DNA of 64,000 nucleotides. Origin: Scilla litardierei. Its lineage: Eukaryota; Streptophyta; Magnoliopsida; Asparagales; Asparagaceae. Position numbers and translations under genes: made by a program. Below the pieces are notes generated by a model. That model saw only the letters and a program-made list of their open reading frames with translations, ran no database searches and was not told the origin of the DNA. Location of the stretch: contig CM061130.1 of the NCBI GenBank assembly GCA_030789695.1, forward strand, positions 14,685,860 through 14,749,859, written 5' to 3'. This document shows positions 1-63,967 of this stretch, piece after piece. Every line of letters begins with the position of its first letter. Position 1 is the stretch's first letter.

Positions 1-826
1 CGAGTGACACTGACATGCAAATTCCAGCACTGCAGCATCAACTTGCAGAAATTCCCCAGATTTCATCCGACCTCCGATTTGCGCGTTCTTGGCGGCGTTG
101 GAACCGTCATGAAGTCTACTATCCATAAAAAATATGAGAAAAATACTTTGATTGCTGGAATGATAGTAGATTTCAAAAGAGTGAGAGGCTGTCTGAAAAT
201 CTGGGCGCTGCATGTCCTCGGCATCACTCGGTCGAGTGGCAAATGTCACTCGGCCGAGGGGCATTTGATACTCGGGTGGACGGCTTTCGTCACTCGGCCG
301 AGTCGGGCTTCTGGGGCAGACTGACGGATTACAGTAAGTTGGACATTTTGGCTTGCCGTCGTCTGGGTGCCACTCGGGCGGACGGAGTCTCCGCACTCGG
401 CCGAGTCGACGTGCGATGCTCGGCCGAGTGCACGCTGATACATCTCTGTTGCGTGTCCGATCTGGCCGGCCGAGCGGGGTCTCAATGCTCGGCCGAGTGA
501 CTCCTTCACTCGGCCGAGTGGCATGCTGAAAATGCCCAATCTTCATCTTTTCGCTCCCCCGTCGCTCCTACAGCGTTCTTTCTTCTTCCACTCCTCTTCC
601 ATCGCAGAATAACCCTCAAAAGGGCCATGGTTGACACTCCGGAGTGGGCGCAAATCCTCTCGATCTCACAATCGATCAAAATCGCTCCATATTTCCTGAA
701 ATACGACAAAAACAAGAAATAGTGAAAAGTAACGCAATATCGTCGAATAATCGTGAAAAGCGTGATATGGGCGATCGAAGTGGCATGCAAATATGCAGAA
801 AAAAGGTGTAAAATATGGACCGATCA
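1..826 (-). repeat. 3' LTR of E1 (partial)
   Basis: Aligns base for base with 5916-6741. It ends CGATCA where other family members end TGATCA. The U3 palindrome array is present; the TATA and R/U5 part lies left of the window. Short ORFs in both directions here come from the GC-rich palindromes, not genes. Confidence 0.88.
227..518 (-). promoter_or_regulatory. Phased CTCGGCCGAG palindrome array in U3 of E1 LTR
   Basis: CTCGGCCGAG-like decamers start at 227, 249, 271, 293 (spacing 22,22,22), then 373, 396, 419 (23,23), then 465, 488, 509 (23,21). The arms CTCG and CGAG are mostly kept while the two central bases vary. Regulatory function is inferred from its place in U3. Confidence 0.6.
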
Positions 827-841
827 AAATCCCCCAAGCTT
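827..841 (-). promoter_or_regulatory. Polypurine tract of E1
   Basis: Read on the minus strand this is AAGCTTGGGGGATTT directly before the LTR, the position of the primer for plus-strand DNA synthesis. The same tract borders element A, element B and E3. Confidence 0.8.
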
Positions 842-2802
842 ACCTCTTACTCGTCCTCGAGGAAGACAAGTAGAAGGCGAACCCGAAGGGTAAAAATAAG
901 GAAAAAAAATGAAAAAGAATACGAAGTGGAAGGGGTCGCTAGATTATTCTCTCAGATCTCAAGCCATAAGCTACACATCACGATAACTTTGGAAATACGA
1001 ATCACATGCTATAAAGATTTCATATCTTACTTAAACATGGCACTTGCAAGCTTTTCAGATCAACAAAAGGGATTCTCTAAATTCATACAATCAATTCATA
1101 TCCACATCATGCATTTCATAGAATTTAATATACAAATGTTGGCGATGCACTTTTCAATCAAGAGTCATAAATGAAGCATATAAGATACACACCAAGCATG
1201 CAATAGAGAATAGAATAAAAGTCATGGCATTCACATATTTATTTCAAATCATGAAAAATCTCCATATCTAATATATTTTGCAAAGTCTAAGCATTATCGA
1301 ATATTCCCATTCATGCACGTCTCCACTCTAATGTCATACTCACTCATATGGTCAAATGAATTCACCCCCCAAGCTTAGCTTGAGGCGTCGCATCCAAAGG
1401 AATATAATAGTGGAAAATGGGATTTTTGCCTTGGTTTTCCCAAGTGTTTTGTGGCTCCAATAATAAGATAGAGAAACATTTTTCTTCTTTTTTTTCTTTT
1501 TGAACTATTTGTTTCTCATTTTTCTTTTTGGATTTTTGTAGGAGCTATATGATTTGTATTTTTGGCTTTTGGCTCCTTTTTGGCTTTTTGGACTTTTTGG
1601 AGCTAACTTTTCTTTTGTGGGGATTGTCGGGAAATATATGCGATATAAGTAGCTTTAGGAGGTGAACTCAAGTGACATGTAGAGAATAAAAAGATATATG
1701 TGGAGAAAGAAATAATGTAACACTCGGTTCACTCTAAGATGTGCACGAACGGTTCAATAAAATAATGCTTCAACTAAAACTCATATGTAAGCATGGATAT
1801 TCTCAATCATTTCAATAAATAGTGAAGTCAAGCAGTAAGTTTACAATCATATCAAGCATGCAACAGGGGGTGAATAAGACAATAAAACTGATGCTTCAGA
1901 TATACTAATGATGCGTGAATCTTGGTGCATTTCCAACAAAAGCATACTAAACACTAATCCATACATTCAGTTTCAATTAATATCATGCATTCATATATAT
2001 AGAAATCATCAAAAGAATATATAAGCAAGCACATGGATAGCAGGATACTGAAATACCCGAAGTAGCATGGTAATGAATAATAAGCATCGTGATGGTTGCT
2101 AAAGCAATAAGAGATATCATCATAAGGAACGCATCTAGCAAAAGAAGAGAAAGGAAAATAAAGAAATAAAAAATAAAAGAGAGGAAAGAAAAGAAAATCA
2201 AGCACACAATATGATGCATGAACACACATAAAAGGAAAATAAGATGGAAAAATCAAAAAGATGATGCGAGAATTTTGAAATTTTTTTTTTTAAAAAAAAC
2301 CCTAAAATAAAGTAAAAAATGCAACTAGATGGCATGGAAATGTACTCCCCCAAGCTTAAACTTCACATTGTCCTCAATGTGATCATAGTGGAAGAATATG
2401 AGGAACAACGATAATAATAAGGGGGTGAATGAAAAATGATGAAATGGATGACATGAAATCCTAATGCAACTACATGCACGTACAATGATGCATGAGAGCG
2501 CTTTCCCCCAAGCTTATACCAAACAATCCTATTCAAGTGACTCAATCAAAAATGTCATGGCTTTGTAAAGCGTGATCAGGTGAAATGAATAAGAAAGTGA
2601 GTATTCACTTGAAAGAAATGCTCGATGGTGGTGAGCAAAAGGATGTGGCGTATCAAAATATGGAGAGGGGAATTAATATATATAATGGGTTTGGGGTGTA
2701 AAAGATTTTTGTTGCCATCATATGAGGTGATATTTATTCAAGCAAATCTATACGGTCCTCTCGCTGTCGAGAGAATTCGTGTTTATTTAAAGCATAAAAT
2801 TT
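842..2802 (-). other. 3' untranslated region of E1
   Basis: AT-rich with no coding signal. It is about 90% alike to 31790-33758 of element A by eye. It holds further PPT-like AAGCTTGGGGG tracts on the minus strand near 1366, 2346 and 2503. An inverted repeat CACATTG-TCCT-CAATGTG lies near 2367. Confidence 0.7.
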
Positions 2803-4428
2803 CTACACTACTGGATTGATATCACCTATAGAAAAAGGCGGATCCAGTATCTTTGCTGGTGCAGGCAACTGCTCCAACTGCTCCTTCCGTGGCTCTGCCA
2901 GGCGCACATGTCCACGGACACCAACGAACTCTAGCAATGCATCCTCCAGCATTCCCACAAGGACTCCACCTGTACCCTGCAGAGAATAGGATGCATCAGT
3001 TCGCTGTAAAAATTTCACCCTCATAATAAAAGTATTCCAAAGAGGATCGTCAATAGAAATATATGAAATAAATAGTGGTGGACGATACTTCCCTGGAAAT
3101 AATCCAATATCCTCACGTGCCGTGATAGCTGTCTCCACGGTGTCTTCTCTATGCTGCTCAGGTAAATCTAGATCATAGGTGTGGACCCCATCAAGATGCT
3201 CCTCATCATCGTCGGACTCATCCCAGTGCACCCCTTGATCATATTCATATGTGTCCATGGGTGCTAACTCCTCGCTCTCCTCCACATATACGTCCCATCG
3301 TACCTCTTGATCGTATGTACATGAATCCTGCAAAAGGCACGATGAATCATAAAAAACATCATACACTGGAGGGAAATCAAAGATAAAGGGCGAGGGAGTA
3401 AAGAGATCTCCTTGAAGGGGGGCCAAAAGCTCTGTGGGGTAGTCCTCTGCGTCAGTGGGAGGATGAGGTGGCTGCGGAAGCTCTAATGGAGGAGGATAGT
3501 GCTCGGGATCCTCATGAATGGCTGTGTCCTCGTCCCGATGCACGACCTCCTCGGTGATAAGCTCTGGCTCTGTGTGTAAGGCCTCCTCAAAAGCATGCTC
3601 TGACTCCGTATGTGAGGCCTCCTCGGCAATATGCTCTGGCTCGATAGTGTGCTCCTTTGCCTTCTCATCAACTATCAATGTAGGCTCTCTCTGGGATGGT
3701 GATGCTGGCTGCTCATGTGTGTCAGCTTGTGGGGATGTATCATGTGGAGGGGAACGCCCGCAAGAAATCTGAAAATATAGTCTATCCCCCTCAAGTCTGA
3801 CATGGATGTCCTCCTCAATTGTTCCTGCAGCTGAAACACGGTTCATAACAAAATCTGCAAATCGTAGCTCAAATGCATCACCTGCTGTAATGCTCTCTGA
3901 ACCGGTGAACCTCGCTGACTCCAAGAGACCCTCCAATAATCTCTGAAATGCGTCCTCCTCTGGCTGCACATATGACTCAGTTTCTGCTTCCTTCACTACC
4001 TCTTCGTCCATCCACTCTTCATATGCAATAGATGTATCGTAGAAAGTGGGATCGACGACGGCACATTCTGGCTCTGGTAGTAAGTCTGGCGATGCTTCTT
4101 GCCCATAAAATGAAGAAGCAGAACTGATATCTTTGGAAATCCCTTCAACCTTAAGCATGAGCATATTCATTTCAAGTTGACTCTTCACCCGTTCCAATAG
4201 AAGGTTACCCTTTTCAAGCCCGGCTTGCACTTCAACCTGGTGTGCATGCATCTCATCAAAAAAGATCCTTTGTCTCTCATCAAGCTCGGGCCAGTGCATC
4301 TCCTCAAAAAGGTATTCGCCCATCTGAGCACTCTCCTCAAAATAGTATTCTCCCATCTCCGCACGAAAATACGCAAATATGCGCGGAATACGTTTCCGTA
4401 TATGCCCGCTCCGCCAGCGCAAGGCCAC
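2803..4428 (-). CDS. Acidic ORF of non-autonomous Athila-type element (541 aa)
   Basis: An uninterrupted 541-residue ORF and the only gene of E1. Residues about 1-100 are charged and helical-looking. A module at about 172-222 (ITAGDAFEL...FVM...GTI...LEGDRLYF) also occurs twice in element A's ORF and once in element B. A long Pro/Glu/Asp-rich region follows with repeats around YDQEVRWD. The last ~80 residues (from about DDPLWNTFI to the end DINPVV) are nearly shared with element A. There is no zinc knuckle, protease or RT motif. Unlike A, the N-terminus has no gag-like segment. I do not recognise the family; a structural or gag-accessory role is a guess. The first Met is used; its codons fall in an inverted-repeat region, so the true start is uncertain. 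Confidence 0.6.
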   Translation of the reverse strand: MALRWRSGHIRKRIPRIFAYFRAEMGEYYFEESAQMGEYLFEEMHWPELDERQRIFFDEMHAHQVEVQAGLEKGNLLLERVKSQLEMNMLMLKVEGISKDISSASSFYGQEASPDLLPEPECAVVDPTFYDTSIAYEEWMDEEVVKEAETESYVQPEEDAFQRLLEGLLESARFTGSESITAGDAFELRFADFVMNRVSAAGTIEEDIHVRLEGDRLYFQISCGRSPPHDTSPQADTHEQPASPSQREPTLIVDEKAKEHTIEPEHIAEEASHTESEHAFEEALHTEPELITEEVVHRDEDTAIHEDPEHYPPPLELPQPPHPPTDAEDYPTELLAPLQGDLFTPSPFIFDFPPVYDVFYDSSCLLQDSCTYDQEVRWDVYVEESEELAPMDTYEYDQGVHWDESDDDEEHLDGVHTYDLDLPEQHREDTVETAITAREDIGLFPGKYRPPLFISYISIDDPLWNTFIMRVKFLQRTDASYSLQGTGGVLVGMLEDALLEFVGVRGHVRLAEPRKEQLEQLPAPAKILDPPFSIGDINPVV

Positions 4429-5886: not shown

Positions 5887-6433
5887 ACTCGGCCGAGTGG
5901 AATATGTGACCCGGCCGAGTGACACTGACATGCAAATTCCAGCACTGCAGCATCAACTTGAAGAAATTCCCCAGATTTCATCCGACCTACGATTTGGGCG
6001 TTCTTGGTGGCGTTGGAACCGTCATGAAGTCTACTATCCATAAAAAATATGAGAAAAATACTTTGATTGCTGGAATGATAGCAGATTTCAAAAGAGTGAG
6101 AGGCTGTCTGAAAATCTGGGCGCTGCATGTCCTCGGCATCACTCGGTCGAGTGGCAAATGTCACTCGGCCGAGGGGCATTTGATACTCGGGCGGACGGCT
6201 TTCGTCACTCGGCCGAGTCGGGCTTCTGGGGCAGACTGACGGATTACAGTAAGTTGGACATTTTGGCTTGCCGTCGTCTGGGTGCCACTCGGGCGGACGG
6301 AGTCTCCGCACTCGGCCGAGTCGACGTGCGATGCTCGGCCGAGTGCACGCTGATACATCTCTGTTGCGTGTCCGATCTGGCCGGCCGAGCGGGGTCTCAA
6401 TGCTCGGCCGAGTGACTCCTTCACTCGGCCGAG
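5887..6433 (-). promoter_or_regulatory. Phased CTCGGCCGAG array in U3 of E1 5' LTR
   Basis: Copy of the array at 227-518 (here 6142-6433) plus two further motifs at 5887 and 5911, upstream of the TATA box in transcription direction. Confidence 0.6.
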
Positions 6434-7090
6434 TGGCATGCTGAAAATGCCCAATCTTCATCTTTTCGCTCCCCCGTCGCTCCTACAGCGTTCTTTCTTC
6501 TTCCACTCCTCTTCCATCGCAGAATAACCCTCAAAAGGGCCATGGTTGACACTCCGGAGTGGGCGCAAATCCTCTCGATCTCACAATCGATCAAAATCGC
6601 TCCATATTTCCTGAAATACGACAAAAACAAGAAATAGTGAAAAGTAACGCAATATCGTCGAATAATCGTGAAAAGCGTGATATGGGCGATCGAAGTGGCA
6701 TGCAAATATGCAGAAAAAAGGTGTAAAATATGGACCGATCAGCGGGCATGTACGGAAACGTATTCCGCGCGTATTTACGCATTTTCGTGCGTATTTCTCC
6801 ATTTAAAGTGTATTCTGCATTCAAAAATTCACAGTAATTAGCATAGATCTAGAAAAATATAAATAAATAGTCGTTGGAATTGTGAGATCGAGATCTAGTA
6901 TGAAAAATATATAAAGTGCAGAATTACTCAGTTTATTACTGTTTTGTGCTCAAATTAAGTGATTTCTCTAATAAATGATGATATACAAAATACGAACGTA
7001 TTAGAGACCCATTAAGCATCATATAAGCACAAAATAGGGTAAATAGGGTGTTAAATATACAATATTCAACCCGAATCACTCTCCCAACGA

Positions 7091-9630: not shown

Positions 9631-9715
9631 CATGCCCAAAAGAACCAAAAAACGTAGACCAAACTGCATTTGCACCGCCAGAAACCCTACTTTTCCCGAC
9701 TGGGTATCTGCGCCA

Positions 9716-9990
9716 CTCGACTGAGTGGAAATCTTACTCGGTCGAGTGATAATTCTACTCGACCAAGTATGACAGTCTGCATATCATCCCAAAAAAACAG
9801 AGAAGTCAGCCTGGCTCTCTTCGAAATCTTGGCCTCCACTCGGGTGAGTCGAGTTCTTGCTCGGCCGAGTGGAATTCACCACTCGGCCGAGTACATTGTG
9901 GTACACAGGCTGGCAGGTGTTGTCGTGTCAGTTTTGCTCGGCCGAGTAGGCTGATTCACTCGGTCGAGTGAGCTACCTTGCTCGGTCGAG
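9716..9990 (-). promoter_or_regulatory. Phased palindrome array, three triplets
   Basis: Decamers start at 9716, 9737, 9758 (21,21); 9839, 9860, 9882 (21,22); 9937, 9959, 9981 (22,22). This is the clearest three-by-three arrangement in the window. Centres vary (CTCGACTGAG, CTCGGTCGAG, CTCGGCCGAG). Confidence 0.65.
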
Positions 9991-10547
9991 AGGCCTGTTT
10001 CAGTGCTCAGTTCTTCTCCTCATTGCTTAGTCGATTCCTTCGACGTCCTTCTTCTTACACTCATCCTCACGCATCGTTAACTCTCCGATATGATCATGAT
10101 CGATGCTCCGGCACACGTGCATGTCCTATAGGCTCCAAATTGCAACCGATTGCTACATATATCCTGAAATCAAACGAAAAATGAGAAATAGTGAAAATTA
10201 TCGAAATATCATCAAATAATCGTGAAAATTGCGATATGAGTGATCACTCCATATTTAATACCTTTTTTCTGCATGTTTTCATGATGTTTTGATCGCCCAT
10301 ATTGCATTTTTCACGATTATTCGACAATATTGCGATGTTTTTCACTATTTCTTGTTTTTGTCGAATTTCAGGAAATATGGAGCGATTTGGAGCGAAAATG
10401 ATATCAAATGAGTTTCACGCACTTTGGAGTGTCACCCACGACTTATTTGAGTATTTATCAGCAATGGAGGATGAGCGGAAGAAGGAGGAATTCGATAGGA
10501 GCGACGAGGAAGCAAAAAGGAGAAGGAATAAGCTCAGGAGCACTTCA

Positions 10548-10896
10548 TTCGGCCGAGCAATACTGCTCATTCGGCCGAGTGGCGGATCACACTCGCCCGA
10601 GTAGAACTGATACGCAACGAAGATTTCAGACGTTCACTCGGCCGAGCAAGGAATTCTGTTCGGCCGAGTACAAAAGTTCACTCGCCCGAGTCAGTCAGGG
10701 AATTCAGACAGGAAAGAGTCGAAGCTACTGGAAAATCTAAGGAAAGCTCACTTGGCCGAGCAAGATTGCTACTTGGCCAAATGAAGAAGCCTACTCGGCT
10801 GAGCCACCCCGAGCGACGGACCCCTGAAAACCCCAAAGTTTCTGTTATTTTACAGGGTTTGTTACTCGGGCGAGTGACAAGGGTCACTCGGCCGAG
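10548..10896 (+). promoter_or_regulatory. Phased palindrome array in U3 of B 5' LTR
   Basis: Triplets starting with 10548, 10570, 10592 (22,22), then near 10638-10692 and 10744-10797, and a doublet 10865, 10887 (22). Most motifs are CTCGGCCGAG, TTCGGCCGAG or CTCGCCCGAG; some have decayed to CTTGGCCAAA. Confidence 0.62.
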
Positions 10897-10982
10897 TGAC
10901 CCTCTCTGCATGCTGCTAGGATTGCGAATTATGGGCTGCGCAGGGACAGTTTTGTCACGATTTTTTGGACGATTTTGGCTTG

Positions 10983-12814: not shown

Positions 12815-13996
12815 CTTGAAAGACTCTTAGATGTCCTTAGGAGTCACAAGGATGTCCTAGGCTACACCATCTCTGATCTAAAAGGAATAAGTCCTAGGCT
12901 TTGCACACATAGAATCCACTTAGAAAACACCGAAGCCACCTCTATAGAGCCTCAAAGGCGGTTAAATCCTAACATGAAGGAGGTGGTTAAGAAGGAAATT
13001 CTGAAATTGCTTGAAGTCGACATTATCTATCCTATCTCTGATAGTAGATGGGTTAGCCCTGTTAATGTCGTCCCTAAAAAGGGAGGGATGCCTGTTATAA
13101 AAAACGAAAAAGGAGAACCCATTTCTACACGTACTGTCATGGGATGGCGGATTTGCATTGATTATAAGAAATTAAATAAAGCCACCTGGAAAGACCATTA
13201 CCCATTGCCCTTCATTGATCAAATGCTAGAGCACCTTGCTAAACTTAAATACTTTTGTTATTTGGATGTGTATTCGGGATTCTTTCAGATCCCTTTGCAT
13301 GAGGATGACCAAGAAAAGACTACTTTCACATGTCCTTATGGCACATATGCCTATCGAAGAATGCCCTTCGGTCTTTGTAATGCCCCCGCCACCTTTCAAA
13401 TGTGCATGACGTCCATCTTTTCTGATTATATTGAAAATATTATGGAAGTTTTCATGGATGATTTTTCTGTTTATGGAAATGAGTTTGATTCATGTTTGGC
13501 TAACCTTACTAAAGTCCTCAAAAGATGCCAACAAAATAATCTCACTCTTAATTGGGAGAAATGTCATTTTATTGTCACCGACGGAATAGTTCTTGGGCAC
13601 CTTGTTTCCTCAAGAGGGATTGAGGTTGATAAGGTGAAAATTGAGGTAATCGAAAAACTCCCTCCTCCCATTAATGTTAAGGGCATTAGAGGCTTTCTTG
13701 GTCATGCAGGATTTTATCGCCGCTTTATCAAGGATTTTGCCTTAATTGCCCGACCTCTCACTGCCCTACTTGCTAAAGATGCTCCATTTGTCTTTTCAGG
13801 AGAGTGCTTGCAAGCATTTAATACATTGAAGGCAGCTCTCATTTCCGCACCCATTATACAACAGCCGGACTGGAGTCTTCCCTTCGAGCTCATGTGTGAT
13901 GCGAGTGATCAAGCTATTGGAGCGATGTTAGGCCAAATGAAGGAAAAGAAGCTTCATGCAATATTCTATGCAAGCAAAACATTGGACGAGGCATAG
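12815..13996 (+). pseudogene. Athila reverse transcriptase and start of RNase H
   Basis: Continues in frame after the stop at 12814; the longest open part starts at 12974. Visible motifs: WVSPVNVVPKKGG, the substrate-binding block YPLPFIDQM, FCYLDVYSGFFQI, RRMPFGLCNAPATFQ and the catalytic FMDD (residues about 155-158 from the Met at 12974). The thumb/connection GFLGHAGFYRRFIKDF and the RNase H start FELMCDASD follow. These are strongly Athila-like. It ends at a TAG (13994-13996) inside RNase H, after SKTLDEA; the same frame resumes immediately. Role: copies element RNA to DNA in virus-like particles. The family call is secure; activity is unlikely because of the stops. Confidence 0.9.
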
Positions 13997-15788: not shown

Positions 15789-16360
15789 GGGAGCTATGCA
15801 AGCTCTCCACGACCAACAATTTGAAGAAAGCTCCGCCGGATAAGAAAGCATCATCATCGACAAAGAAAAAGATTGGTACAAGCTCAAGCTTGAGGGACAT
15901 ATCCCCCAACACTACCTATGATGAGGGGAAGCCAAGGAATGACCACGGATATCAACAACCAAATCCAAGAGGCCTTCCCGACAAATTTAACGGGCGCATC
16001 TCGTATGCGCCAAATATCACGCACTAAACGAAAAATCATAAGGGGTCGAGCTCAAGACCTTAAACGAGGGCTTGTCGGGAGGCAACCCGACGGTTTTATA
16101 TTGATTTTAATTGAATTCTCTTTTTTGTTTTAGATTTTTCTTAGTGTTAGAGTCTAGAGTCAATAAAAATCGTGACGACAGGCTCTATTTTTCATGATAG
16201 GAGATGGAGAACGAGAAATCATTCATATGGAGGATGACCATGGCAAGGGAGAGCTCTCCAGGAACGCTCTCAGGCCTTAGGAAGAGGAAGAAACTGACGG
16301 GAGCGAGAAAAACAGAGATTAGAGCAAAAACAGAGAGCCGAGGCTGAAAATTGCAAGCCA
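15789..16360 (+). other. Post-pol spacer of B with conserved hairpin
   Basis: Remains of the integrase tail, then non-coding. At 16074-16091 lies the hairpin GTCGGGAGGCAACCCGAC (6-bp arms), present also in E3 at 27925-27942 with surrounding bases conserved. Confidence 0.6.
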
Positions 16361-16671
16361 CTCGGCTGAGTGTACATGTCACTCGGCCGAATGAAGACTC
16401 TACTCGGCCGAGTAGAGTACCGATCAGGGATGATTCTACAGACCCAATCTCTGTTATTTTTTGTAGTTTATAGTACTATTTCCACTCGGCCAAATGACTA
16501 TGTTACTCAGCCGAGTGAATCAGATACCTTACACGCTTCAAAAATCGTCGAGTGGAACTTGTCCATTCAGACGAGTGGAAAAAGTTACTCGGCCGAGTCG
16601 TATGTTTTGAGAGATTTTGAAATTTTTTATCGACAAGCTGTTCGGCCGAGTGAACGCGTCACTCGGTCGAG
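16361..16671 (+). promoter_or_regulatory. Internal phased palindrome array of B, upstream of ORF3
   Basis: Decamers start at 16361, 16382, 16403 (21,21); 16485, 16506 (21); about 16543, 16566, 16588; 16641, 16662 (21). Same motif as the LTR arrays but located between pol and ORF3. A TATA-like CATATATAC lies 10 bp downstream. Confidence 0.6.
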
Positions 16672-16681
16672 TCACTACATC

Positions 16682-21100: not shown

Positions 21101-22864
21101 TGATCACTCCATATTTTATACCTTTTTTCTGCATGTTTTCATGATGTTTTGATCGCCCATATTGCGTTTTTCACGATTATTCGACAATATTGTGATGCTT
21201 TTCACTATTTTTTGTTTTTCTCGAATTTCAGGAAATATTGAGCGATTTGGAGCGAAAATGAGATCAAATGAGTTTCACGCACTTTGGAGTGTCACACACG
21301 ACTTATTTGAGGATTTATCAGCGATGGAGGATGAGCAGAAGAAGAAGGAATTCGATAGGAGTGACGAGGAAGCAAAAAGGAGAAGGAATAAGCTCAGGAG
21401 CACCTCACTCGGCCGAGCAGGACTGCTCATTCGGCCGAGTGACGGATCACACTCGCCCGAGTAGAACTGATACACAACGAAGATTTCAGACGTTCACTCG
21501 ACCGAGCAAGGAATTCCGTTCGGCCGAGTATGAAAGTTCACGAGCCCGAGTCAGTCAGGGAATTCAGACAGGAAAGAGCCGAAGCTACTGGAAAATCTAA
21601 GGAAAGCTCACTCGGCCGAGCAAGATTGCTACTCGGTCGAATGAAGAAGCCTACTCGGCCGAGCCACCCCGAGAGACGGACCACTGAAAATCCCAAAGTT
21701 ACTGTTATTTTACAGGGTTTGTCACTCTGGCGAGTGACAAGGGTCACTCGGTCGAGTGACCCTCTCCGCCTGCTGCTAGGATTGCGAATTCCGGGCTGCG
21801 CAGGGGCAGTTTTGTCACCATTTTTTGGACGATTTTGGCTTGTATTTAAGCCCTGTTTTTACCCTAGTTTTAGGAGAGACTTGAATTATTTTTTAGAGAC
21901 TTCTTTTAGGTTTTTGACGGCTACTCTTTGGAGAAATCTCAGCTGGAGATCATTGGCTACACCTTTGGTTTGTTCTTTCTTATTAAAAACTCAATTTTTA
22001 TGAATTGTTTCTCTATTGCAATGAATTGTGCCAGGATTATTATCAATATTTCTGAGATTTGCATGATGATTAGTGAGTAGTTCCGTTGTTCTAGGGCATA
22101 GGGATGAAACCTATGGACCCGATCTTTTGGATTGTGATGAATTTATGGATTTGTTGCTAGAATTGATAATGGTTAGGTTGTGATCGATATATTACGAGTA
22201 GCTAGGAATTCATATCGATTCGGATTTGCAAGAGATTGGATCCCAATTGATAGGAAGGCCTAGATATTCGATTTAGATTGATAATTGAATTTCTCTAGAC
22301 TTGGTTTGCAAGGGATTGGACCAAAGCTAGGATTTTTAATTATGGGTCTATATTAATATTCGTTTGCAAGAGATTGGACGAATAGGAATTATCACAACCT
22401 AGATCGTAGCTCGAGTTTGCACGAGAGTGGGCTGGAGATGCGATTGGACAATGATGTCGTTCTTCACGCTAGCGGCTCAGGCTAGGGTTTACACGAGAGT
22501 GTGCCCTAACCTAGGTTTGCTATAGACCGGAAATAGCGCGAGAGCGTGAGCTTGGTTCTACTTTAAGTTGCGACTAGTTAACTTATATCCAAGCTTAGCA
22601 ACAATGAAATTTAGGTTTCACAAGGATGAGAGACGGTCCGTAGTGGGGATTTCCTATCCCTAGATGCTTTATTATATTGATATTTCTCTGGTATTGAACG
22701 ATTGTGATGATACACCAAATTACTCTTATTCTCTTGATAGCTAGGTAATTAAAGTGAGATACTGTGAATTGTCCTCCCTGTGTTCAATACCCGCTCGTCA
22801 CTACACCGTGCGCTTGCGGTAAAACTACAAGTCGTTTTTTCGGGTGTATATCCGGATGCGATCA
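21101..22864 (+). repeat. 3' LTR of B
   Basis: 1764 bp copy of 10241-12019 with scattered substitutions. It ends GCGATCA, followed by TSD ATGAG. TATTTAAG at 21843-21850. Confidence 0.92.
21408..21756 (+). promoter_or_regulatory. Phased palindrome array in U3 of B 3' LTR
   Basis: Same positions relative to the LTR start as in the 5' LTR. Some motifs decayed in the 5' LTR are intact here (CTCGGCCGAG at 21408). Confidence 0.62.
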
Positions 22865-27284: not shown

Positions 27285-27305
27285 GTGTTAAGTCGGTTTG
27301 AGTCA

Positions 27306-27649
27306 CTCGGCCGAGTGACAAAGTCACTCGGCCGAGTGACAAAGTCACTCGACCGAGTCACAATTAGAAATAGAGTAGGGTATTTTCAAAAATTTTACGT
27401 CAGTCTCCGACTCGGCCGAGTAGAACTTGTTACTCGGTCGAGTAGACTAGGTTACTCGGCCGAGTAGACATGCCTCTTAGTGCATTTTAAGAGCTAATGG
27501 TGTCAAATTCACTCGGTCGAGTGACAAAGTCACTCGGTCGAGTGGCATATAATTTCCAGAGAGGGGGGGTTTCGAGACTTCCCTTTATAGTACCCTACAC
27601 GGTCGAGTAGGATCTTCGCTCGGCCGAGTGAACAAGGCACTCGGTCGAG
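27306..27649 (-). promoter_or_regulatory. Internal phased palindrome array of E3
   Basis: Decamers start at 27306, 27327, 27348 (21,21); 27411, 27433, 27455 (22,22); 27512, 27533 (21); 27598, 27619, 27640 (21,21). Triplet, triplet, doublet, triplet, with CTCGGCCGAG, CTCGGTCGAG and CTCGACCGAG variants. 27650-27924 is a spacer with no coding signal. Confidence 0.65.
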
Positions 27650-27924
27650 TGGGCTGCTCTTTTCATCTCCAGACTCTCTGTTTTGAGATGCTTTCTGTTT
27701 CTTCCTCTCCCATTAGTTTCTTCCTTCCTATGGCAGTTAAGCGCATTCCTGGAGTGCTCTCCATCGCCATGCACATCCTCCATTCATATGGACTCCTGTC
27801 ATCTTCTTCCTGAAATGAAAATGTAGCCCATTGTCAAATTCTTCCTAGACTCTTGACTCTATAGACTAATAAAGATATAAAACAAAAATGAAAGTAAAAT
27901 TCAACTAAAACCTAAGATAGAATC

Positions 27925-30959: not shown

Positions 30960-31470
30960 CTCGACCGAGTGGGGAAAGCTAACTCGGCCGAGTGAGAATT
31001 CCAGCACTGCAGCGTCGACTTACAGAAATTCTCCAGATTTCATCCGACCTCCGATTAGCATGTTTTAGCGGCGTTGGAATCGTCATGAAGTCTACTATCC
31101 ATAAAAAATATGAGAAAAATAATTTGATGGCTGGAATGATATCAGATTTCAAAAGAGTAAGAGGTGGTCTGAAATTCTGGGAGCTGTGTGTCCTCGGCAT
31201 CACTCGGCCGAGTGGCAAATGTCACTCGGCCGAGGGGCTTTTGGTACTCGGCCGAGTCGGAGCTCGTAGTCGATTGACGGATTACAGTAAGTCTGGTCTT
31301 TTGGATGCCGTCGTTCGTGTGCCACTCGGGCGAGTGGTGTCTCCATACTCCGCCGAGTGGGATGTCGTCACTCGGTCGAGTGCATGCTAATCTTCAAGTA
31401 ATTGCGTGTCCGATCTGGCCGGCCGAGTGGGCTTCTTTCCTCGACCGAGTGAGTCCTTCACTCGGCCGAG
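30960..31470 (-). promoter_or_regulatory. Phased palindrome array in U3 of A 3' LTR
   Basis: CTCGACCGAG at 30960 through CTCGGCCGAG at 31461, in groups at about 22 bp spacing, upstream of the TATA at 30856-30863. One AAACCCTA motif lies between them near 30872. Confidence 0.6.
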
Positions 31471-31774
31471 TGGCATGCTGAATATACACAAACTTCATCT
31501 TTTTGCTTCCCCGTCGCTCCTACGACGTTCTTTCTTGTTCCACCCGTCTTCTATCGCTGATAGGTCCTCAATAAGTCCATGAGCGATGCTCCGTTATGCG
31601 TGCAAGTCCTTTAAGCTCATTTTTGCTCCCAATTGCTCATATTTCCTAAAATCCAACAAAAACAAGAAATAGTGAAAAGTAACACAATATCATCGAATAA
31701 TCATGAAAATCGCAATATGAGCAACCGAAATGGCAGGCAAATATGCAGAAAAAGGTGTAAATATGGCGTGATCA

Positions 31775-36826: not shown

Positions 36827-37338
36827 CTCAGCCGAGTGGGGAAAGCTCACTCGGCCGAGTGAGAATTCCAGCACTGCAGCGTCGACTTACAGAAATTCCC
36901 CAGATTTCATCCGACCTCCGATTTGCGTGTTCTTGGCGGCGTTGGAATCGACATGAAGTCTACTATCCATAAACAATATGAGAAAAATACTTTTATGGCT
37001 GGAATGATATCAGATTTCAAAAGAGTAAGAGGCGGTCTGAAATTCTGGGCGATGTGTGTCCTCGGCATCACTCGGTCGAGTGGCAAATGTCACTCGGCCG
37101 AGGGGCTTTTGGTACTCGGCCAAGTCGGAGCTCGTAGTCGACTGACAGATTACAGTAAGTCTGGTCTTTTGGATGCCGTCGTTCGTGTGCCACTTGGGCG
37201 AGTGGTGTCTTCATACTCGGCCGAGTGGGATGTCGTCACTCGGCCGAGTGCACGCTAATCTTCAAGTAATTGCGTGTCCAATCTGGCCGGCCGAGTGGGC
37301 TCCTTTCCTCGACCGAGTGAGTCCTTCACTCGGCCGAG
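36827..37338 (-). promoter_or_regulatory. Phased palindrome array in U3 of A 5' LTR
   Basis: Motifs from CTCAGCCGAG at 36827 to CTCGGCCGAG at 37329, same layout as the 3' LTR; telo-box-like AAACCCTA near 36740 and TATA further downstream. Confidence 0.6.
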
Positions 37339-37648
37339 TGGCATGCTGAAAATACCCAAACTTCATCTTTTCGCTTCCCCGTCGCTCCTACGACGTTCTT
37401 TCTTGTTCCACCCGTCTTCTATCGCTGATAGGTCCTCAATAAGTCCATGAGCGATGCTCCGTTATGTGTGCAAGTCCTTTAAGCTCATTTTTGCTCCCAA
37501 TTGCTCATATTTCCTGAAATCCGACAAAAACAAGAAATAGTGAAAAGTAACACAATATCATCGAATAATCATGAAAATCGCAATATGAGCAACCGAAATG
37601 GCAGGGAAATATGCAGAAAAAGGTGTAAAATATGGAGTGATCAACCCT

Positions 37649-38866: not shown

Positions 38867-40122
38867 TGATCGCTCTCAGATATACACCCAAAAAAATGTA
38901 GCTTTACCGCAAATGCACGGTTAAGTGGCAAGTGGGTATCGAATCACAAGGAGGATGAATGATGGTACTCTATTTCAATTACTAAGCTATTTGGTGGAAA
39001 ATCGTTTAAAAGTAGATGGTGCAACGATCGTTCGAGTATTAATGCAAATTCAATATAATAAAGTCATCTAGGACTAGGGAATCCCCATTGTGGATTTTCA
39101 AGTTATCAATGTGAGTTATGAATAACCATGCAATCAAATTTGGTTAAAGGTGAACTTGGCGTAACTCTATGGAGAACCGACTCACGTTGTCGCGCTATTG
39201 TAGGTCTATAGCAATCTAAATTAGAGCACTGCTATCGTGCAAGCCTAACTCAAAACCACTAGCATTAAGCTCGGCAATTATGTTCAATCCCAACTCAAGC
39301 TCGCTGTCGTGCAACTTGGATTCGGATCTAGATCATGATAGTTCGTAATCCTTCACCGTCGTGAAACAAGTATGAGTATAGGAAAACAATAAAAACGCTA
39401 TCTTTGGTCGCTGTCGCGCACCAAATCTAGGAAATTTCGATTGTAAACCTAAATCGAACATCTAGGGCTTACCTTAGATCAAGATCCTCTGTCAAGCTCA
39501 CGAGATCCAAGAGAAATCCCTATATATTCGCATTAAATCAATCAAGATATAACCTTTCCAACAAGCCTAATAGAATGGAAATTCGATATATCTCACAATT
39601 CAAACATTAGATCCATAGGGTTCATCCCTTTGCCCTAGAGCAAAGGAACTACTCACAATTCATATTATAAATCGATAGAGAGACAAGATCAACAATAGAA
39701 TTCATCATGCAATCAAGATTCAACAAGAAATATAGCATAAAAATCAAAACTTGCAAGAGATTAAGATAAACCAATGTCGCCAAAGAAGCTTTCAATAGGA
39801 AATTAAGATCCAATCTTCAATCTCTCGCCAATACAAAAGATAAAAATCTGATTAGAAACTAAGGAAAAATAGTTCTAAGAAGTCTATCTGGTCTCTCCTT
39901 GGGCTAGAGACAAAACTGGGCTTAAATACATACCCAAAAGAACCAAAAAACACAGACCAAACTGCCATTGCACTTCCAGAAACCCTAGTTTTCCCGATGG
40001 GTGTATGTGCCACTCGCACGAGTGGAAATCTTACTCGGTCGAGTGATAATTCTACTCGGCCGAGTATGACAGTCTGCAGATCATCCCAAAAAAGAAAGAA
40101 GTCGGCCTGGTTGTCTTCAAAA
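38867..40122 (-). repeat. 5' LTR of E3, truncated
   Basis: Aligns with 8565-9820 and then stops. The U3 end with most of the palindrome array is lost; only one triplet remains (about 40014-40065). TATA on minus at 39921-39928. Tat gag sequence starts directly after the break. Confidence 0.8.
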
Positions 40123-41572: not shown

Positions 41573-43348
41573 TGCCTTACCCTTGCAATACTAACAGCAC
41601 ACACTAGAGGGGGGAGGGGGTGAATAGTGTAATGTCAATAAAATTGTTCAATTAAAATTAAACTTGCAAATGCGGAATTATAAATGCAAGAGGAAATAAT
41701 TGACACAATCAATCCAAATGCAAACACAAGATTTTACCCTGGTTCTCCAAACTTAAGTACATCCAGCCACACCAATATTCACTATATTCCCACAAAGAGA
41801 AGTGAATACAAATCTCACAAGGAGATACCCCACCAAGAGGATTTTGCCCTACACAAGGACCCAACCAACCCTACACGAGATTCAAGACTCCCACCAAGAG
41901 AATCACTAACTCCCACTCAGAGAATTAGAGTTAGCCCTACACTAGGACACTAAACTCCCACAAAGAGAGTTACTCCCACAAAGAGAGTTATTCCTACTAA
42001 AAGAATATCCTAATCCCACAAAGAGATAAACTCTCACAAAGAGAGAAAGACTAATTCCCACAAAGAGAATTAGAGTAACAAATTCACCAATTAAAATAAA
42101 TACTCTTACCTATGCCTTGAGATGCTTACTCATATATGAATGCAAGGCATGGAAGAGGATCTCCAAGTGTTGAGATTGGCTTGAAAGCACTTGGATGAAT
42201 TCCCTTGAGCTGGACTTCAATGCATGAAGAGGAATGAGAGCTCAAATAAGGGAATTGAGAGAGTTTATGAGTGGCTTAAAGATCTCCTGTGATTTTCAAT
42301 AGCATCAAGAATTTCTAGAGATATCAGCACACCCATATATATATGAACCCTATATCAACCCTCAAAACCCAAGAAAACAGCCATCAGCCCAAAGCTGCAA
42401 CGGCTAGAAACTAGGCAAAAATGACATCAACAGTCGACTGATGATCAAAAGACAGTCGACTAATCAACAGCTAGAAAATATCCAACGGCTATAATCTGAG
42501 CCAGGACAGTCGACTGATGAAGTCGATACAGTCGACTGTAAATAGGACAGGCGCCTGTTAAACCTTCAGTAGGCGACTGCTGCAGGGGATGGAATGAAAC
42601 AGAGAGCTGCACTCTTTCTCCAGAAAAACATACAGGCGACTGATGTCAATAATACAGTCGACTGTCAAATAGTCAGAAAGATGTAGAGATTGCACTTACG
42701 CTTCTCAGACGACTGTTGGCTAATTCCCAGGCGACTGCAAATCTACAGGCGACTGTTAACTGAGTAGCAGTCGACTATGCGTAAATCTCAAGTTTGAGTC
42801 AATTGAAATGTTGACTTGAGCAGTGCATATCATTCGACTGTAGAAGGATCTACAGGCGACTGGAAATCACCCAGTTGACTGTGTTTCCTTCAGCAGGCGA
42901 CTGATGGAAAGCCAGAGACTCCAAATGAGTCTTTGGTCAAGATGAACCTATTAGGTTGGATTCTATGATAATCCTAAGGCTCACTAAGATGGCTAAATGC
43001 ATATGCATGAATGAGTAAACCATCTATCAAGGCATTACATTAACCTAGATTCAAATGAGAGAGAAAGCAATAAAGTAAACATTACATGGATTACATTGCT
43101 TTCCTTAGAGTCTAAGTCTTCAATCTTGATGCCTTAATTTCTCTCCATCATCTCCAAGCTTTGTCATCCCTTGAGTCCAAGCTTTGGCCTTTCTCCACTT
43201 GATGGCCATCCTTGCACCAAGTGATTAGTCTCCAAGAAAGATATTCTACGAATGAAACTATGAGACTAAAACAGGAAAGTCATTAGCAACAATATAATGT
43301 TGTGATCATCATCAAAATAAGATTGGTATGAAACACCAATACTCAACA
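41573..43348 (-). repeat. Old SIRE-like copia LTR relic
   Basis: On the minus strand it starts TGTTGAGTATTGG (the young copia LTR starts TGTTGAATATTGG). It ends near TGCCTTACC with ACTAGAGGGGGG just inside, as in 51466-53214. No internal region and no clear TSD, so it is a solo LTR or recombinant. CCCACAAAGAGA-type repeats lie at 41790-42070. A TATATATATA box on minus lies at 42335-42344. Confidence 0.7.
42431..42903 (-). promoter_or_regulatory. Phased CAGTCGACTG / CAGGCGACTG array in copia LTR relic
   Basis: Pairs at 42431/42453 and 42634/42656 (spacing 22). Quartets at 42507, 42529, 42548, 42570 (22,19,22); 42706, 42728, 42746, 42768 (22,18,22); 42831, 42853, 42872, 42894 (22,19,22). Every adjacent pair is exactly 22 apart with an 18-19 step in the middle. 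It lies just upstream of the TATA box on the minus strand. Confidence 0.65.
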
Positions 43349-52276: not shown

Positions 52277-52813
52277 TAGTCGGTCAAAGAACAATCACTG
52301 ACCGACTAGTTCATCAACTAGTCGGTCAGTCAAACAGCATGGACCGACTAAGTGAAGATCTGAGAAGAGATAGAATTTCAGACCTAGAAATCTAGTCGGT
52401 CCAAGAAGACTTTCTGACCGACTAGTTTCACAACTAGTCGGTCAGTCAGTGAACGTAGACCGACTAAGAGGCAAAATGAAATAGTCTGAACACAAGTTGA
52501 CTTAGTCGGTCCAAGAACAAAAGTTGACCGACTAGATTGTCAACTAGTTGGTCACCAAACGTTCTTAGACCGACTAACGATAAACAGTAGCTTGGGAGAA
52601 ATTTAGCATGAACAGTAAGTCACAACTAGTCGGTCAAAGAAGCATCACTGACCGACTAGTTCACAAACTAGTCGGTCGGTGAGTCAACGTAGACCGACTA
52701 ACTGTAAACAGTAAAGTCCAAGAAATTAAGGAATCAAACTAGTCGGTCCAAGAAGAGTTACCGACCGACTAGATCACCATCTAGTCGGTCAGTACTTGTT
52801 CTTGTACCAACTA
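52277..52813 (-). promoter_or_regulatory. Five 74-nt AGTCGGTC/GACCGACT hairpin units in U3
   Basis: Units at 52277-52350, 52393-52466, 52503-52576, 52627-52700 and 52740-52813, each exactly 74 nt: a 33-nt arm, an 8-nt loop and a 33-nt arm. Arm ends TAGTCGGTC and GACCGACTAG are almost invariant; the 14 bases between them vary. Unit spacing is 110-124 bp. Confidence 0.75.
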
Positions 52814-53214: not shown

Positions 53215-53230
53215 TTCTCCCCCTTTTTGG
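53215..53230 (-). promoter_or_regulatory. Polypurine tract of copia element
   Basis: Minus-strand CCAAAAAGGGGGAGAA adjoining the LTR start. Confidence 0.9.
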
Positions 53231-56148: not shown

Positions 56149-56533
56149 AGACCGACTAAAATGAGTTTTAGTCGACTGAAAAATAGATTAAGTCGGTCGA
56201 GATCTGGAAAAGACACAAATGCCCTAACCCACTTAGTCGGTCATAGTTCAAGCACTGACCGACTAGATTACGATCTAGTCGGTCGGTCAATGAGCTTGAA
56301 CCGACTAAGTCGAAACAGAGGCAAACAGTGATTTTTAGGGCAAGATTTAGTCGGTCGCAGTATACTCACTGACCGACTAGTTTTCAATCTAGTCGGTCGG
56401 TAAATGTACTGTGACCGACTAAAGAGAGAAAATGAAAAGAGTTAGATGAAAGCTTGATCTAGTCGGTCTGAGTTCATTTGCTGACCGACTAGATGAGCAT
56501 CTAGTCGGTTGACAAATGAACTGAAACCGACTA
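56149..56533 (-). promoter_or_regulatory. Internal hairpin array of copia element
   Basis: Three units at 56234-56307, 56348-56421 and 56460-56533, again exactly 74 nt with 8-nt loops, plus a degenerate part at 56149-56207. Here the arms are complementary almost throughout (for example GTTCATTTG pairs in the last unit). Motif identical to the LTR array although the rest of the sequence is unrelated. 56534-56778 is a spacer with nothing recognised. Confidence 0.75.
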
Positions 56534-56778
56534 GAAGAGTTCAAAAATTGATAATTGATTTCTCTTCACAAACCACTTGGATGAAACATCTTAACACTCT
56601 CATTAGTCATCTAAATTACCCCATAAAACGTCGAAATCTTAAATACGACATTGAAATACGAATTCGATCATAAATTCAAACAAATCTCATAAAATTCCCA
56701 AAAATTCAACAAATCTAGCATGAACGAAATATCGCGAAATATATTAGCATGCAAGATGATTGAGTTCAAATATGAATC

Positions 56779-58263: not shown

Positions 58264-58395
58264 GGCAAGGATCCAAGCACTATCTTCGCACGCTTCAACG
58301 ATATTCTTTGGCTCTATCGATGAGGCAAAGGCACAATTGGCGAAGTGGTGGACTTGAGATCTCGTCTTGACACTATCATTAATATTGCCAATAAC

Positions 58396-59850: not shown

Positions 59851-59946
59851 TTTAAATTTGTTGATCCTCTTCTTTTTCTTTTCCTTGAGTACCTAAAGAT
59901 AGAAACTTTCATATCATGGTACCCAAGGTCATTGGGTCCTCAAAAG

Positions 59947-62187: not shown

Positions 62188-62194
62188 AGCTAAG

Positions 62195-62212
62195 TATCTG
62201 GCTCTGATACCA
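62195..62212 (-). promoter_or_regulatory. Primer-binding site of copia element (tRNA-iMet)
   Basis: Minus-strand TGGTATCAGAGCCAGATA, the standard copia PBS complementary to initiator tRNA-Met, seven bases from the LTR. Confidence 0.93.
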
Positions 62213-62219
62213 AATTGAA

Positions 62220-63967
62220 TGCCCTACCAGCTACTGCACAAGTACTAGAGGGGGGGTGAATAGTACTTTAAAATAATAAGGAGTATAATTCCAAATTAAA
62301 TTGCAAACAACTACCAAATCAATTTGTGGAAGCTTAAATTGAATGACAACAACAAAATTAACAATGCAAACAAATGATGTTAATGGGTTCGGATCCACCC
62401 AAGTCTCCCCGACTTGTTCCCGGTGATCCTACGTCCCAACCACCCGGATCCCCTCCGGATACTTGAGTTAGAAACCCTAACTCAAGATTTCCACTATGAA
62501 TATCTTGTGAAAAACCTTCACAAGATCAAATCATACATGCAATAGCAAACGTGAATCCCACAACCCGGGATCACAACCTTCTCTCACAGCCGAGAGAATC
62601 ACAAAGCAATATTAAAGAGTTTAATATGAAATAAACAATCTTACCACAAAATCCTATACCTTGAGTTTTTCTTACCCAAATGGTGAAATGAAGGATTTGA
62701 GGAAGATGAAGTCACCAAGACCTAGCACCAAGGAAATGACCAGCAATCGGTGCCTAGGGATGATTTGGAGACTTGGATCAAGCAATAGCTTGAAGAGCTC
62801 ACCAAGAACAACCTTCTCTCTAGATGGATTCTAGATCTAGAAATGAGAGAGAATGGGTTTCTTGTGAGGAAGAGAGCTTTAGATTTGAGTGAGAATGGCT
62901 ATCTCTTTTGATCTCAATGAATCTCTGAATGGAAGCTCTTACCTAGATAGAAATGACCTAGGTTCGTATTTATAGGGTCCCATAAAAACAAGTTAGGTCA
63001 TTCTCCAACGGATAGAAATCTGTGAGAATTAGTCGGTCAAAGAACAATCACTGACCGACTAGTTCATCAACTAGTCGGTCAGTCAAACAGCATGGACCGA
63101 CTAAGTGAAGATCTGAGAAGAGATAGAATTTCAGACCTAGAAATCTAGTCGGTCCAAGAAGACTTTCTGACCGACTAGTTTCACAACTAGTCGGTCAGTC
63201 AGTGAACGTAGACCGACTAAGAGGCAAAATGAAATAGTCTGAACACAAGTTGACTTAGTCGGTCCAAGAACAAAAGTTGACCGACTAGATTGTCAACTAG
63301 TCGGTCACCAAACGTTCTTAGACCGACTAACGATAAACAGTAGCTTGGGAGAAATTTAGCATGAACAGTAAGTCACAACTAGTCGGTCAAAGAAGCATCC
63401 CTGACCGACTAGTTCACAAACTAGTCGGTCGGTGAGTCAACGTAGACCGACTAACTGTAAACAGTAAAGTCCAAGAAATTAAGGAATCAAACTAGTCGGT
63501 CCAAGAAGAGTTACCGACCGACTAGATCACCATCTAGTCGGTCAGTACTTGTTCTTGTACCAACTAACATGCACAATAAAGTCCGAATCGAAGCGCGATG
63601 CTTCGAGGAAGTTAGAATGAACTTGTGCAAGGATCCTAGAGCTACGAAATGAGCGTAATGAAGATAGAAACGTAAGATATACTCAAGGCTTAACATTCTA
63701 TATATCGAAGCTAAAAGACTATAAATAAAACCTTAATAAACGGTCTTCGAGAGCTTCGATTGAATCTTCATAACTTCCAAAACGGCGCAAGAGCTTCAAC
63801 GAAGCTTTAGGCATGAATACGAGCTTTGGGAAGTGTTGAGATGTCGCTTTGAATGTTCTCGTGAAATTGGCGACGATCTCCAATACTACGCTCACAAATT
63901 GTTAGTTCATGGATTGTTTATGTTTGCTCATCATCAAAACCAAATCCGGGGAGTCCAATATTCAACA
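62220..63967 (-). repeat. 5' LTR of young copia element
   Basis: Full-length copy of 51466-53214 (TGCCCTACC to TTCAACA on plus). It shares its outer end with a further internal region to the right. Confidence 0.93.
63030..63566 (-). promoter_or_regulatory. Five 74-nt hairpin units in U3 of the 5' LTR
   Basis: Units at 63030, 63146, 63256, 63380 and 63493, 74 nt each, differing from the other LTR by two bases. TATA at 62967-62974. Confidence 0.75.

What the first reader, a model, noticed from the sequence alone, without database searches (positions are those of the whole stretch)
227..63566. Same promoter syntax in unrelated Athila and copia LTRs: phased CpG palindromes just upstream of TATA
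Seen directly: Athila LTRs (E1, A, B, E3), an old copia LTR (41573-43348) and a young copia LTR (51466-53214) each carry a ~275-550 bp cluster of 10-bp CpG palindromes. Each cluster begins about 300-450 bp from the U3 end and stops about 55-105 bp before a TATA box. Motif sequences differ (CTCGGCCGAG, CAGTCGACTG, CTAGTCGGTC with its complement), but the neighbour spacing is 21-24 bp throughout, two DNA helical turns. Copia and Athila share no LTR homology, so convergence or recruitment of a shared host factor is suggested. Inference: homodimeric transcription factor sites on one DNA face. Alternatives: RNA structure, or templates for 21-22 nt small RNAs. I know of no description of this, but cannot search.
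Basis: partly seen in the sequence, partly recalled or inferred. Interest (0 to 1): 0.88.

Follow-up and report, generated by a model that had tools for sequence, protein, structure and literature searches.

The report
Phased promoter arrays in plant retrotransposons
Two unrelated kinds of plant retrotransposon in the genome of a bulb plant related to Muscari carry, in front of their promoters, arrays of a short DNA motif whose copies sit about two turns of the helix apart; such arrays were already reported for one of the two kinds, and here they appear in the other as well, with strict spacing and a likely second promoter.

Summary
The arrays are real. Athila LTRs carry CACTCGGCCGAGTG palindromes: 70 copies with at most 2 mismatches in the window, 0 in each of 20 shuffles, mostly in triads at 21-23 bp pitch. 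Both copia LTRs look like Sireviruses and carry quartets. In the young copia, CGG cores within a quartet are 21 bp apart: 37 of 37 gaps in the window, 94 of 94 in a 200-kb sample. Genome-wide, 481,374 of 483,106 half-site pairs have 14 spacer bases (by subtraction).

For copia this is known: palindromic "RM boxes" upstream of TATA and of ENV were described in 2010 as Sirevirus-specific (PMC2829016). I did not find in print (i) the same architecture in Athila (Ty3/Gypsy), (ii) the module grammar and phasing, (iii) a second Athila array before the env-like region followed by a TATA-like box 10-19 bp downstream (8 of 9 loci; the ninth has TATAAG).

Motif cores are conserved while spacers diverge, and the halves do not covary, which favours protein binding to DNA over RNA stems. 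The factor, and whether Athila and Sireviruses share one, is unknown. New variant of a known kind.

The parts
10546..10898 (+). Athila A 5' LTR array: triads 10546/10568/10590, 10635/10657/10679, 10749/10770/10792, pair 10863/10885; TATTTAA at 10983
21406..21758 (+). Athila A 3' LTR array, same layout; TATTTAA at 21843
9714..9992 (-). Athila E3 3' LTR array, three triads; TATTTAA about 9624-9630
37069..37340 (-). Athila-type B 5' LTR, three triads; further pair at 36825/36848; TATTTAA about 36725-36731
31201..31472 (-). Athila-type B 3' LTR, three triads; further pair at 30958/30981; TATTTAA about 30857-30863
6140..6435 (-). Athila-type E1 5' LTR, three groups (one extra 22-bp unit in the last); further pair 5886/5908; TATTTAA about 5785-5791
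225..520 (-). Athila-type E1 3' LTR array (the LTR is cut by the window start, TATA not visible)
40011..40066 (-). one triad in the truncated E3 5' LTR
16359..16673 (+). Athila A internal array between integrase and the env-like region; TATATA at about 16684
27304..27651 (-). Athila E3 internal array before the env-like region; TATTTAA about 27278-27284
52277..52813 (-). young Sirevirus-type 3' LTR (LTR 51464-53214): five quartets of half-sites, CGG cores 21 bp apart; TATAAA about 52216-52221
63030..63566 (-). the same five quartets in the other LTR; TATAAA about 62969-62974
56234..56534 (-). young Sirevirus-type internal array (three quartets) between pol and the env-like ORF; no TATA-like box found downstream
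42431..42903 (-). old solo Sirevirus-type LTR (about 41590-43348): CAGTCGACTG-type sites, three quartets 22-18/19-22 and two pairs; TATATA about 42338-42343
12815..13996 (+). Athila A reverse transcriptase and RNase H
   Evidence: PF00078, PF17919, PF17917
54171..62223 (-). young copia coding region: gag 59947-62223, integrase 58396-59892, RT 56779-58395, PF20167 env-like ORF 54171-55292; iMet-type PBS at 62201

Best explanation
The arrays are upstream promoter elements: modules of three or four binding positions, about two helical turns apart, on which a sequence-specific, probably dimeric or multimeric, DNA-binding protein assembles on one face of the DNA to drive the LTR promoter. In Athila a second array plus its own TATA-like box sits in front of the env-like region and probably acts as an internal promoter. 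The Sireviruses have an array at the same place, but no TATA-like box was found there. Shown: sites, geometry, abundance, position, conservation. Inferred: protein binding, promoter activity, direction of effect. Whether the factor is one host protein for both superfamilies, different host proteins, or element-encoded is open.
For: Spacing is constrained more than spacer letters: 481,374 of 483,106 TAGTCGGTC...GACCGACTA pairs found with 2-31 spacer bases have 14 (99.64%, by subtraction; the tool calls its counts lower bounds), yet 60 such spacers from twenty 10-kb stretches hold 48 different sequences with mean pairwise identity 0.39. CGG-core gaps under 40 bp are all 21: 37 of 37 in the window, 94 of 94 in the sample, while the longer gaps run 42-61; in two more loci 14 of 15 are 21 and one is 20. 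Athila pairs: 89,890 at 8-16 spacer bases (the roughly 100 listed are all 11-13, read by eye), 551 at 2-10, 19,359 at 17-46; in the sample 35 of 37 gaps under 40 bp are 21-23. Athila cores differ less between families than spacers do (A-B and E1-E3 differences 21 core: 48 spacer; LTR-pair differences 14: 7; odds ratio 0.22, p 0.0045). Halves of 65 sites do not covary (351 Watson-Crick pairs, 348.7 +/- 4.8 shuffled). Internal and LTR arrays of an element share only the motif: no BLAST match with E below 0.3 after masking sites (A, E3, young copia). Athila internal arrays are followed by a box matching TATAWA, TATATA or TATTTAA after 10-12 bp in 7 of 9 loci and after 19 bp in E3; L038 has TATAAG at 13 (L037 and L038 read by eye). 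Random 40-mers of the same loci have such a box in 5.9%. In the twenty stretches 11 of 16 arrays have one within 130 bp, in each case on one side only; Athila offsets 84 (four) or 10-11 (two).
Against: No binding, TSS, small-RNA or methylation data. No factor identified. Five of 16 arrays in the sample (1 of 7 Athila, 4 of 9 young-copia type) have no TATA-like box in reach, and 0 of 3 Sirevirus internal arrays have one downstream. Seven of the nine Athila internal loci were chosen because their linker matched that of A, so they are related copies, not independent cases; their pitches are mostly 21-23 but include 20, 30 and 37. Arrays also fold strongly as RNA (mononucleotide-shuffle z -5.6 to -13.6, two control stretches -3.1 and -6.4). 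Old-copia sites lack the CGG core, and L051 holds a run of 20-bp steps. The conservation test is small, uses pairs that are not fully independent and aligns spacers without gaps. Young-copia spacers are not wholly free: G stands at spacer position 4 next to the outer half-site in 98% of 70.
Confidence: 0.7

Rival explanations
1. The arrays work as RNA: palindromes in the transcribed U3 and internal region fold into hairpins that feed small RNAs or serve packaging or dimerisation; promoter position is incidental.
For: Strong predicted folding. Published for maize Sireviruses: excess small RNAs over the palindrome region (Genome Res 2016, as cited in PMC10760457). All arrays would lie in the genomic RNA (inference).
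Against: Left and right halves of 65 Athila sites show no compensatory pairing beyond shuffles (not tested for the copia arrays). A near-fixed 14-base loop and 21-bp phasing have no clear reason in an RNA hairpin. Folding may be a by-product of the motif.
Confidence: 0.15
2. Neutral tandem duplication: units multiplied by slippage or unequal exchange and the spacing is just the unit length.
For: Young-copia spacers are more alike within an LTR than shuffled ones (0.48-0.64 vs 0.25-0.33; 0 of 500 shuffles); Athila A and E3 spacers slightly so (11 and 13 of 500 shuffles reach the observed value). E1 has one extra 22-bp unit relative to B.
Against: Athila B and E1 spacers are not clearly more alike than shuffled ones (107 and 139 of 500, in which two E1 sites were mis-registered). 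Core letters are kept between families while spacer identity falls to 0.39-0.67. Gaps between modules vary while gaps within do not. The two arrays of an element share only the motif. Duplication probably made the modules; it does not explain their upkeep.
Confidence: 0.08
3. An element-encoded protein, in the manner of the VANC anti-silencing proteins of VANDAL transposons (recalled), binds the element's own array to open chromatin.
For: Motifs differ between element families but are alike within one, including the internal array.
Against: Among the ORFs scanned, the young copia shows gag, pol and a PF20167 ORF and no recognisable DNA-binding ORF. The env-like ORFs of copia and Athila do not match each other (no other proteins were compared). 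OPIE-2 and PREM-2 have arrays without ENV (PMC2829016). The 541-aa ORF of B has no detectable relatives, so it cannot be excluded as such a factor for E1 and B.
Confidence: 0.1

Closest known systems
Sirevirus repeated-motif (RM) boxes, Bousios et al. 2010, BMC Genomics 11:89 (PMC2829016)
   Same: Arrays of dyad-symmetric motifs with a CGG-CCG core, 200-400 bp into the LTR and 300-500 bp long, shortly upstream of TATA, with further copies upstream of the ENV gene. The young copia here matches position and ENV copies; the old copia motif resembles the CGG-less Tnd-1 exception.
   Different: Reported there as Sirevirus-specific; here also in Athila (Ty3/Gypsy). Module grammar, 21-bp phasing and an internal TATA-like box are not in the passages I read (a text search for spaced, spacing, interval, helical and periodic found nothing relevant; supplements not seen).
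[quoted passage not shown] 2016 (not held; seen only as cited in PMC10760457)
   Same: Palindrome clusters in the LTR cis region; hairpin potential.
   Different: Small-RNA focus; CACCGGAC...GTCCGGTG motif; maize. Whether it reports spacing I could not check.
Dyad or repeat activator boxes of Tnt1 and similar LTR retrotransposons (as mentioned in PMC2829016 and PMC10760457)
   Same: Repeated, partly palindromic U3 activators.
   Different: Few copies and no helical phasing known to me (recalled).
Athila4 / Calypso endogenous plant retroviruses (Wright and Voytas 2002; not read)
   Same: Env-like gene after pol; Asp-type PBS (recalled).
   Different: Splice acceptor sites were predicted for Athila env (as cited in PMC2829016), not an internal promoter with its own array.

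Membership tests
Sirevirus RM-box array | Dyad-symmetric motif in many LTR copies (at least 8 copies per element) | tested here: met
   Athila 9-11 palindromes per complete LTR array, old copia 16 sites (a 17th at 3 mismatches left out), young copia 20 half-sites in inverted pairs
Sirevirus RM-box array | CGG-CCG core | tested here: inconclusive
   Met in Athila (CTCGGCCGAG) and, as split half-sites, in the young copia; not met in the old copia (CAGTCGACTG), as in the published Tnd-1 exception
Sirevirus RM-box array | Starts 200-400 bp into the LTR, shortly upstream of TATA | tested here: met
   About 300 (A, B, E1) and 400 bp (young copia); old copia about 445, slightly beyond; TATA-like box 55-94 bp past the last site in 9 of 9 LTRs that could be looked at, but over 300 bp past the main triads in B and E1
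Sirevirus RM-box array | Extra copies upstream of the ENV gene | tested here: met
   A 16359-16673, E3 27304-27651, young copia 56234-56534, seven further Athila loci; in Athila the env-like region is assigned by position, without a Pfam hit
Sirevirus RM-box array | Array forms a CpG island | tested here: inconclusive
   CpG o/e 0.82-1.36 in seven arrays, 0.36 and 0.46 in two control stretches, 0.81 for the window; no island caller run
Sirevirus RM-box array | Carried by a Sirevirus | tested here: not met
   Not met for the Athila arrays (RVT_1-type RT in A, Asp-type PBS)
Sirevirus (young copia) | Copia RT, iMet-type PBS, several PPT copies before the 3' LTR, polyC signal near the LTR end, ENV-like ORF | tested here: met
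   PF07727; GCTCTGATACCA at 62201; four GGGGGAG motifs about 53213-53510; CCCCCCCC near 51500; PF20167 ORF
Sirevirus (young and old copia) | Place in an RT phylogeny | not tested
   No tree built; the old copia is a solo LTR without RT found
Athila lineage | Gypsy RT-RH-IN order, Asp-type PBS, env-like gene after pol | tested here: inconclusive
   RVT_1, RNase H and integrase domains in A; PBS exact in B, 3 mismatches in A and E3; A and E3 share an ORF stretch after pol (72% over 87 aa) without Pfam hit; no RT tree

The most novel reading that the evidence does not exclude
Two LTR-retrotransposon superfamilies, Athila and Sireviruses, have converged on one host transcription platform: modules of CGG-type half-sites set two helical turns apart, used twice per element, once for the genomic RNA and once for an internal env promoter. 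The host factor would face over half a million phased site pairs in this one 3.7 Gb genome.
Probability: 0.33. Interest if true: 0.8.

Novelty: new variant of a known kind. Interest (0 to 1): 0.64.

Why it matters
In 2010 no common binding factor could be named for the Sirevirus boxes (PMC2829016), and I found none since in the papers searched. Near-exact spacing, module size and the appearance of the same layout in an unrelated superfamily give a defined probe (a 75-bp module) for finding it. If Athila env-like genes have their own promoter, the open question of how and whether they are expressed in plants becomes directly testable by 5'-end mapping.

Tried and rejected
Relatives outside the host: a scan of viral contigs for paired CTCGGCCGAG gave 8 loci, none with an array (at most two neighbouring sites within 3 mismatches), taken as chance. 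No plant genome other than the window's own was available, so Athila arrays in other plants are untested.

Shared half-site between families (YASTCGR): similarity is not beyond chance, not used as evidence. LBD factors as candidates: one paper search gave nothing usable. Homology between the copia env-like ORF and two Athila ORFs: none found. The B ORF (541 aa): none of 8,000 scored candidates reached E 0.001. The copia gag search gave 27 relatives at 34% identity or less, the named ones from plants, and no host name.

The first RNA-folding script timed out; a smaller one with mononucleotide instead of dinucleotide shuffles replaced it. In one search two E1 sites were mis-registered; one search corrects them. 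The helical relation of array-TATA distances (84 vs 93-94; 44-45 vs 55, about one turn apart) is suggestive only.

Literature searches: (one search failed). Read: section 9 and passages of PMC2829016; passages only of PMC10760457, PMC11302176, PMC4977677, PMC7264820, PMC1142308, PMC5738225, PMC3414828, PMC11963269, PMC8282616. "Not found in print" means not found in these.
Full report
Setting. The window lies at 14.69-14.75 Mb of contig C1 of a 3.68 Gb assembly. A matK frame from that assembly is 97% identical to Muscari racemosum (Merwilla 95%, Brimeura 93%), so the host is probably a monocot near Muscari in the Scilloideae (placement partly recalled). The window is a nest of LTR retrotransposons: Athila A (plus strand, LTRs about 10240-12018 and 21100-22862), Athila E3 (minus, interrupted by A and B), two short Athila-type elements E1 and B in which no pol was recognised among the ORFs scanned, a young copia (minus, LTRs 51464-53214 and from 62218) and an old solo copia LTR. 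LTR distances (K2P): A 0.054, B 0.032, E1 0.007, young copia 0.003, E3 0.098 on the part that aligns.

Which copia. The young copia has a copia RT, an iMet-type primer site, four GGGGGAG tracts before the 3' LTR, a polyC run near the LTR end and an env-like ORF with PF20167. These are marks given for Sireviruses in PMC2829016. The old LTR shows a polyC run and a similar LTR start. No RT tree was made.

The observation. Within 2 mismatches of CACTCGGCCGAGTG there are 70 sites in the window and none in any of 20 dinucleotide shuffles; within 4 mismatches 110 against 7-17. The Athila sites form triads. In the order of transcription the LTR reads triad, 45-55 bp, triad, 70-81 bp, triad, then in A, B and E1 a pair, then TATTTAA; in B and E1 the pair stands more than 200 bp from the third triad, and E1 has an extra unit in that triad. 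All 24 within-triad pitches of four LTRs are 21 (6), 22 (13) or 23 (5). The old copia has CAGTCGACTG-type sites in quartets 22-18/19-22; over it and six further loci the short gaps are 22 (51), 19 (13), 20 (4) and 18 (2), with a run of 20s in L051. The young copia has single half-sites in quartets 23-19-23, five in each LTR and three before env. Taken from the middle of CGG or CCG, gaps under 40 bp are all 21: 37 of 37 in the window and 94 of 94 in the sample, while the others are 42-61. In L044 and L045 14 of 15 are 21 and one is 20.

Genome-wide. The tool calls its counts lower bounds. TAGTCGGTC and GACCGACTA with 2-31 bases between occur at 483,106 places (reversed-pattern control 1), of which 1,021 have 2-13 and 711 have 15-31 bases, leaving 481,374 with 14. 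CTCGGCCGAG pairs: 89,890 at 8-16 bases (control 1), 551 at 2-10 (control 2), 19,359 at 17-46 (control 23); the 14-16 count was not obtained. CAGTCGACTG pairs: 41,107 at 2-31 bases (control 14); of 50 listed plus-strand places, counted by eye, 32 have pitch 22, seven 20, one 19, ten 40-41. The sample is twenty 10-kb stretches at round coordinates (5, 25, 55 Mb) of contigs C1-C7, chosen before looking. There, a search for inverted or palindromic 8-mer arrays returned these three motif types plus groups of other 8-mers without the phasing. A motif-based recount found 7 Athila and 9 young-copia-type arrays. Half-sites within 1 mismatch number 150 (31 in one mononucleotide shuffle), Athila sites within 3 mismatches 74 (3).

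Selection. Between Athila families the 8-bp motif core agrees at 0.82-0.92 and the spacers at 0.39-0.67 (six family pairs). In LTR pairs, which record only decay since insertion, cores have changed at least as often as spacers (14 of 216 against 7 of 146; three pairs). Set against 21 core and 48 spacer differences in A-B and E1-E3, this gives odds ratio 0.22, p 0.0045. It is an approximation: sites are few, B and E1 are related, and spacers were aligned without gaps with the better of two anchors, which favours spacer identity.

DNA or RNA. In 65 Athila sites the two halves pair no better than when halves are exchanged at random among sites (351 against 348.7 +/- 4.8 Watson-Crick pairs). Each half is simply close to YACTCGG. 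Near-exact spacing with varied spacer letters is expected of proteins side by side on DNA, not of hairpin loops. The arrays do fold strongly, so a small-RNA role or by-product remains possible.

Two arrays per element. Athila A and E3 and the young copia have a second array between pol and the env-like region. After masking the motif, internal and LTR arrays share no sequence (best E 0.39-0.79), so the motif was not simply copied with its surroundings, or the copying is too old to see. Seven more Athila internal arrays were fetched, chosen because their linker matched that of A. Their layout is largely the same, with some pitches of 20, 30 or 37. A TATA-like box follows the last palindrome by 10-12 bp in seven of nine and by 19 bp in E3; L038 has TATAAG at 13, which the pattern used does not match (L037 and L038 read by eye). 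The sample holds two more arrays with a box at 10 and 11 bp, probably internal. Three Sirevirus internal arrays have none downstream. I read the Athila arrangement as an internal promoter; this is inference.

Prior work. PMC2829016 described the Sirevirus boxes, their CGG-CCG core, position before TATA and before ENV, and called them Sirevirus-specific; it supported an internal ENV promoter for Sireviruses without identifying one. It notes that splice acceptor sites were predicted for Athila env. Thus the copia half of the finding is known. My searches did not find the Athila arrays, the phasing or this Athila internal promoter in print. PMC4977677 speaks of an internal promoter region of Athila6A in Arabidopsis in one passage, which I did not follow up, so an internal promoter in Athila as such may not be new. 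Subscription papers are mostly absent from the library.

Verdict. Real, non-random and very abundant; best read as a phased binding platform for promoter activation; the shared factor is a good but unproven idea. New variant of a known kind.

Noticed in passing
46211-47525: About 24 copies of a 55-bp tandem repeat with an inverted repeat CGAAGGGG..CCCCTTCG in its unit.
   Followed up: no
7088-7321: 55-bp tandem repeat, about 4 copies.
   Followed up: no
2803-4458 and 33759-35384 (minus): 551- and 541-aa open frames in the two short Athila-type elements; the latter has no relative at E 0.001 among the 8,000 scored candidates and neither has a Pfam hit at E 0.01.
   Followed up: partly
63967-64000: Identity of the two young-copia LTRs runs about 33 bp beyond the LTR start into the PPT, suggesting another copy in tandem beyond the window.
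   Followed up: no
6162-6220 versus 37069-37127: E1 has one extra 22-bp palindrome unit compared with B: a single-unit gain or loss.
   Followed up: partly
55880-56120 (minus), L044, L045: Downstream of the Sirevirus internal array lies a CT-rich stretch resembling a plant 5' leader.
   Followed up: partly
young-copia quartets in the window, L017-L036, L044, L045: In 35 distinct quartets a G stands at position 4 of the 14-base spacer next to the outer half-site in 98% of 70, and inner half-sites are mostly flanked by GWT/AWC.
   Followed up: partly
LTRs of A, B, E1 and the sampled copia arrays: Array-to-TATA distances differ by about one helical turn (84 vs 93-94; 44-45 vs 55).
   Followed up: partly
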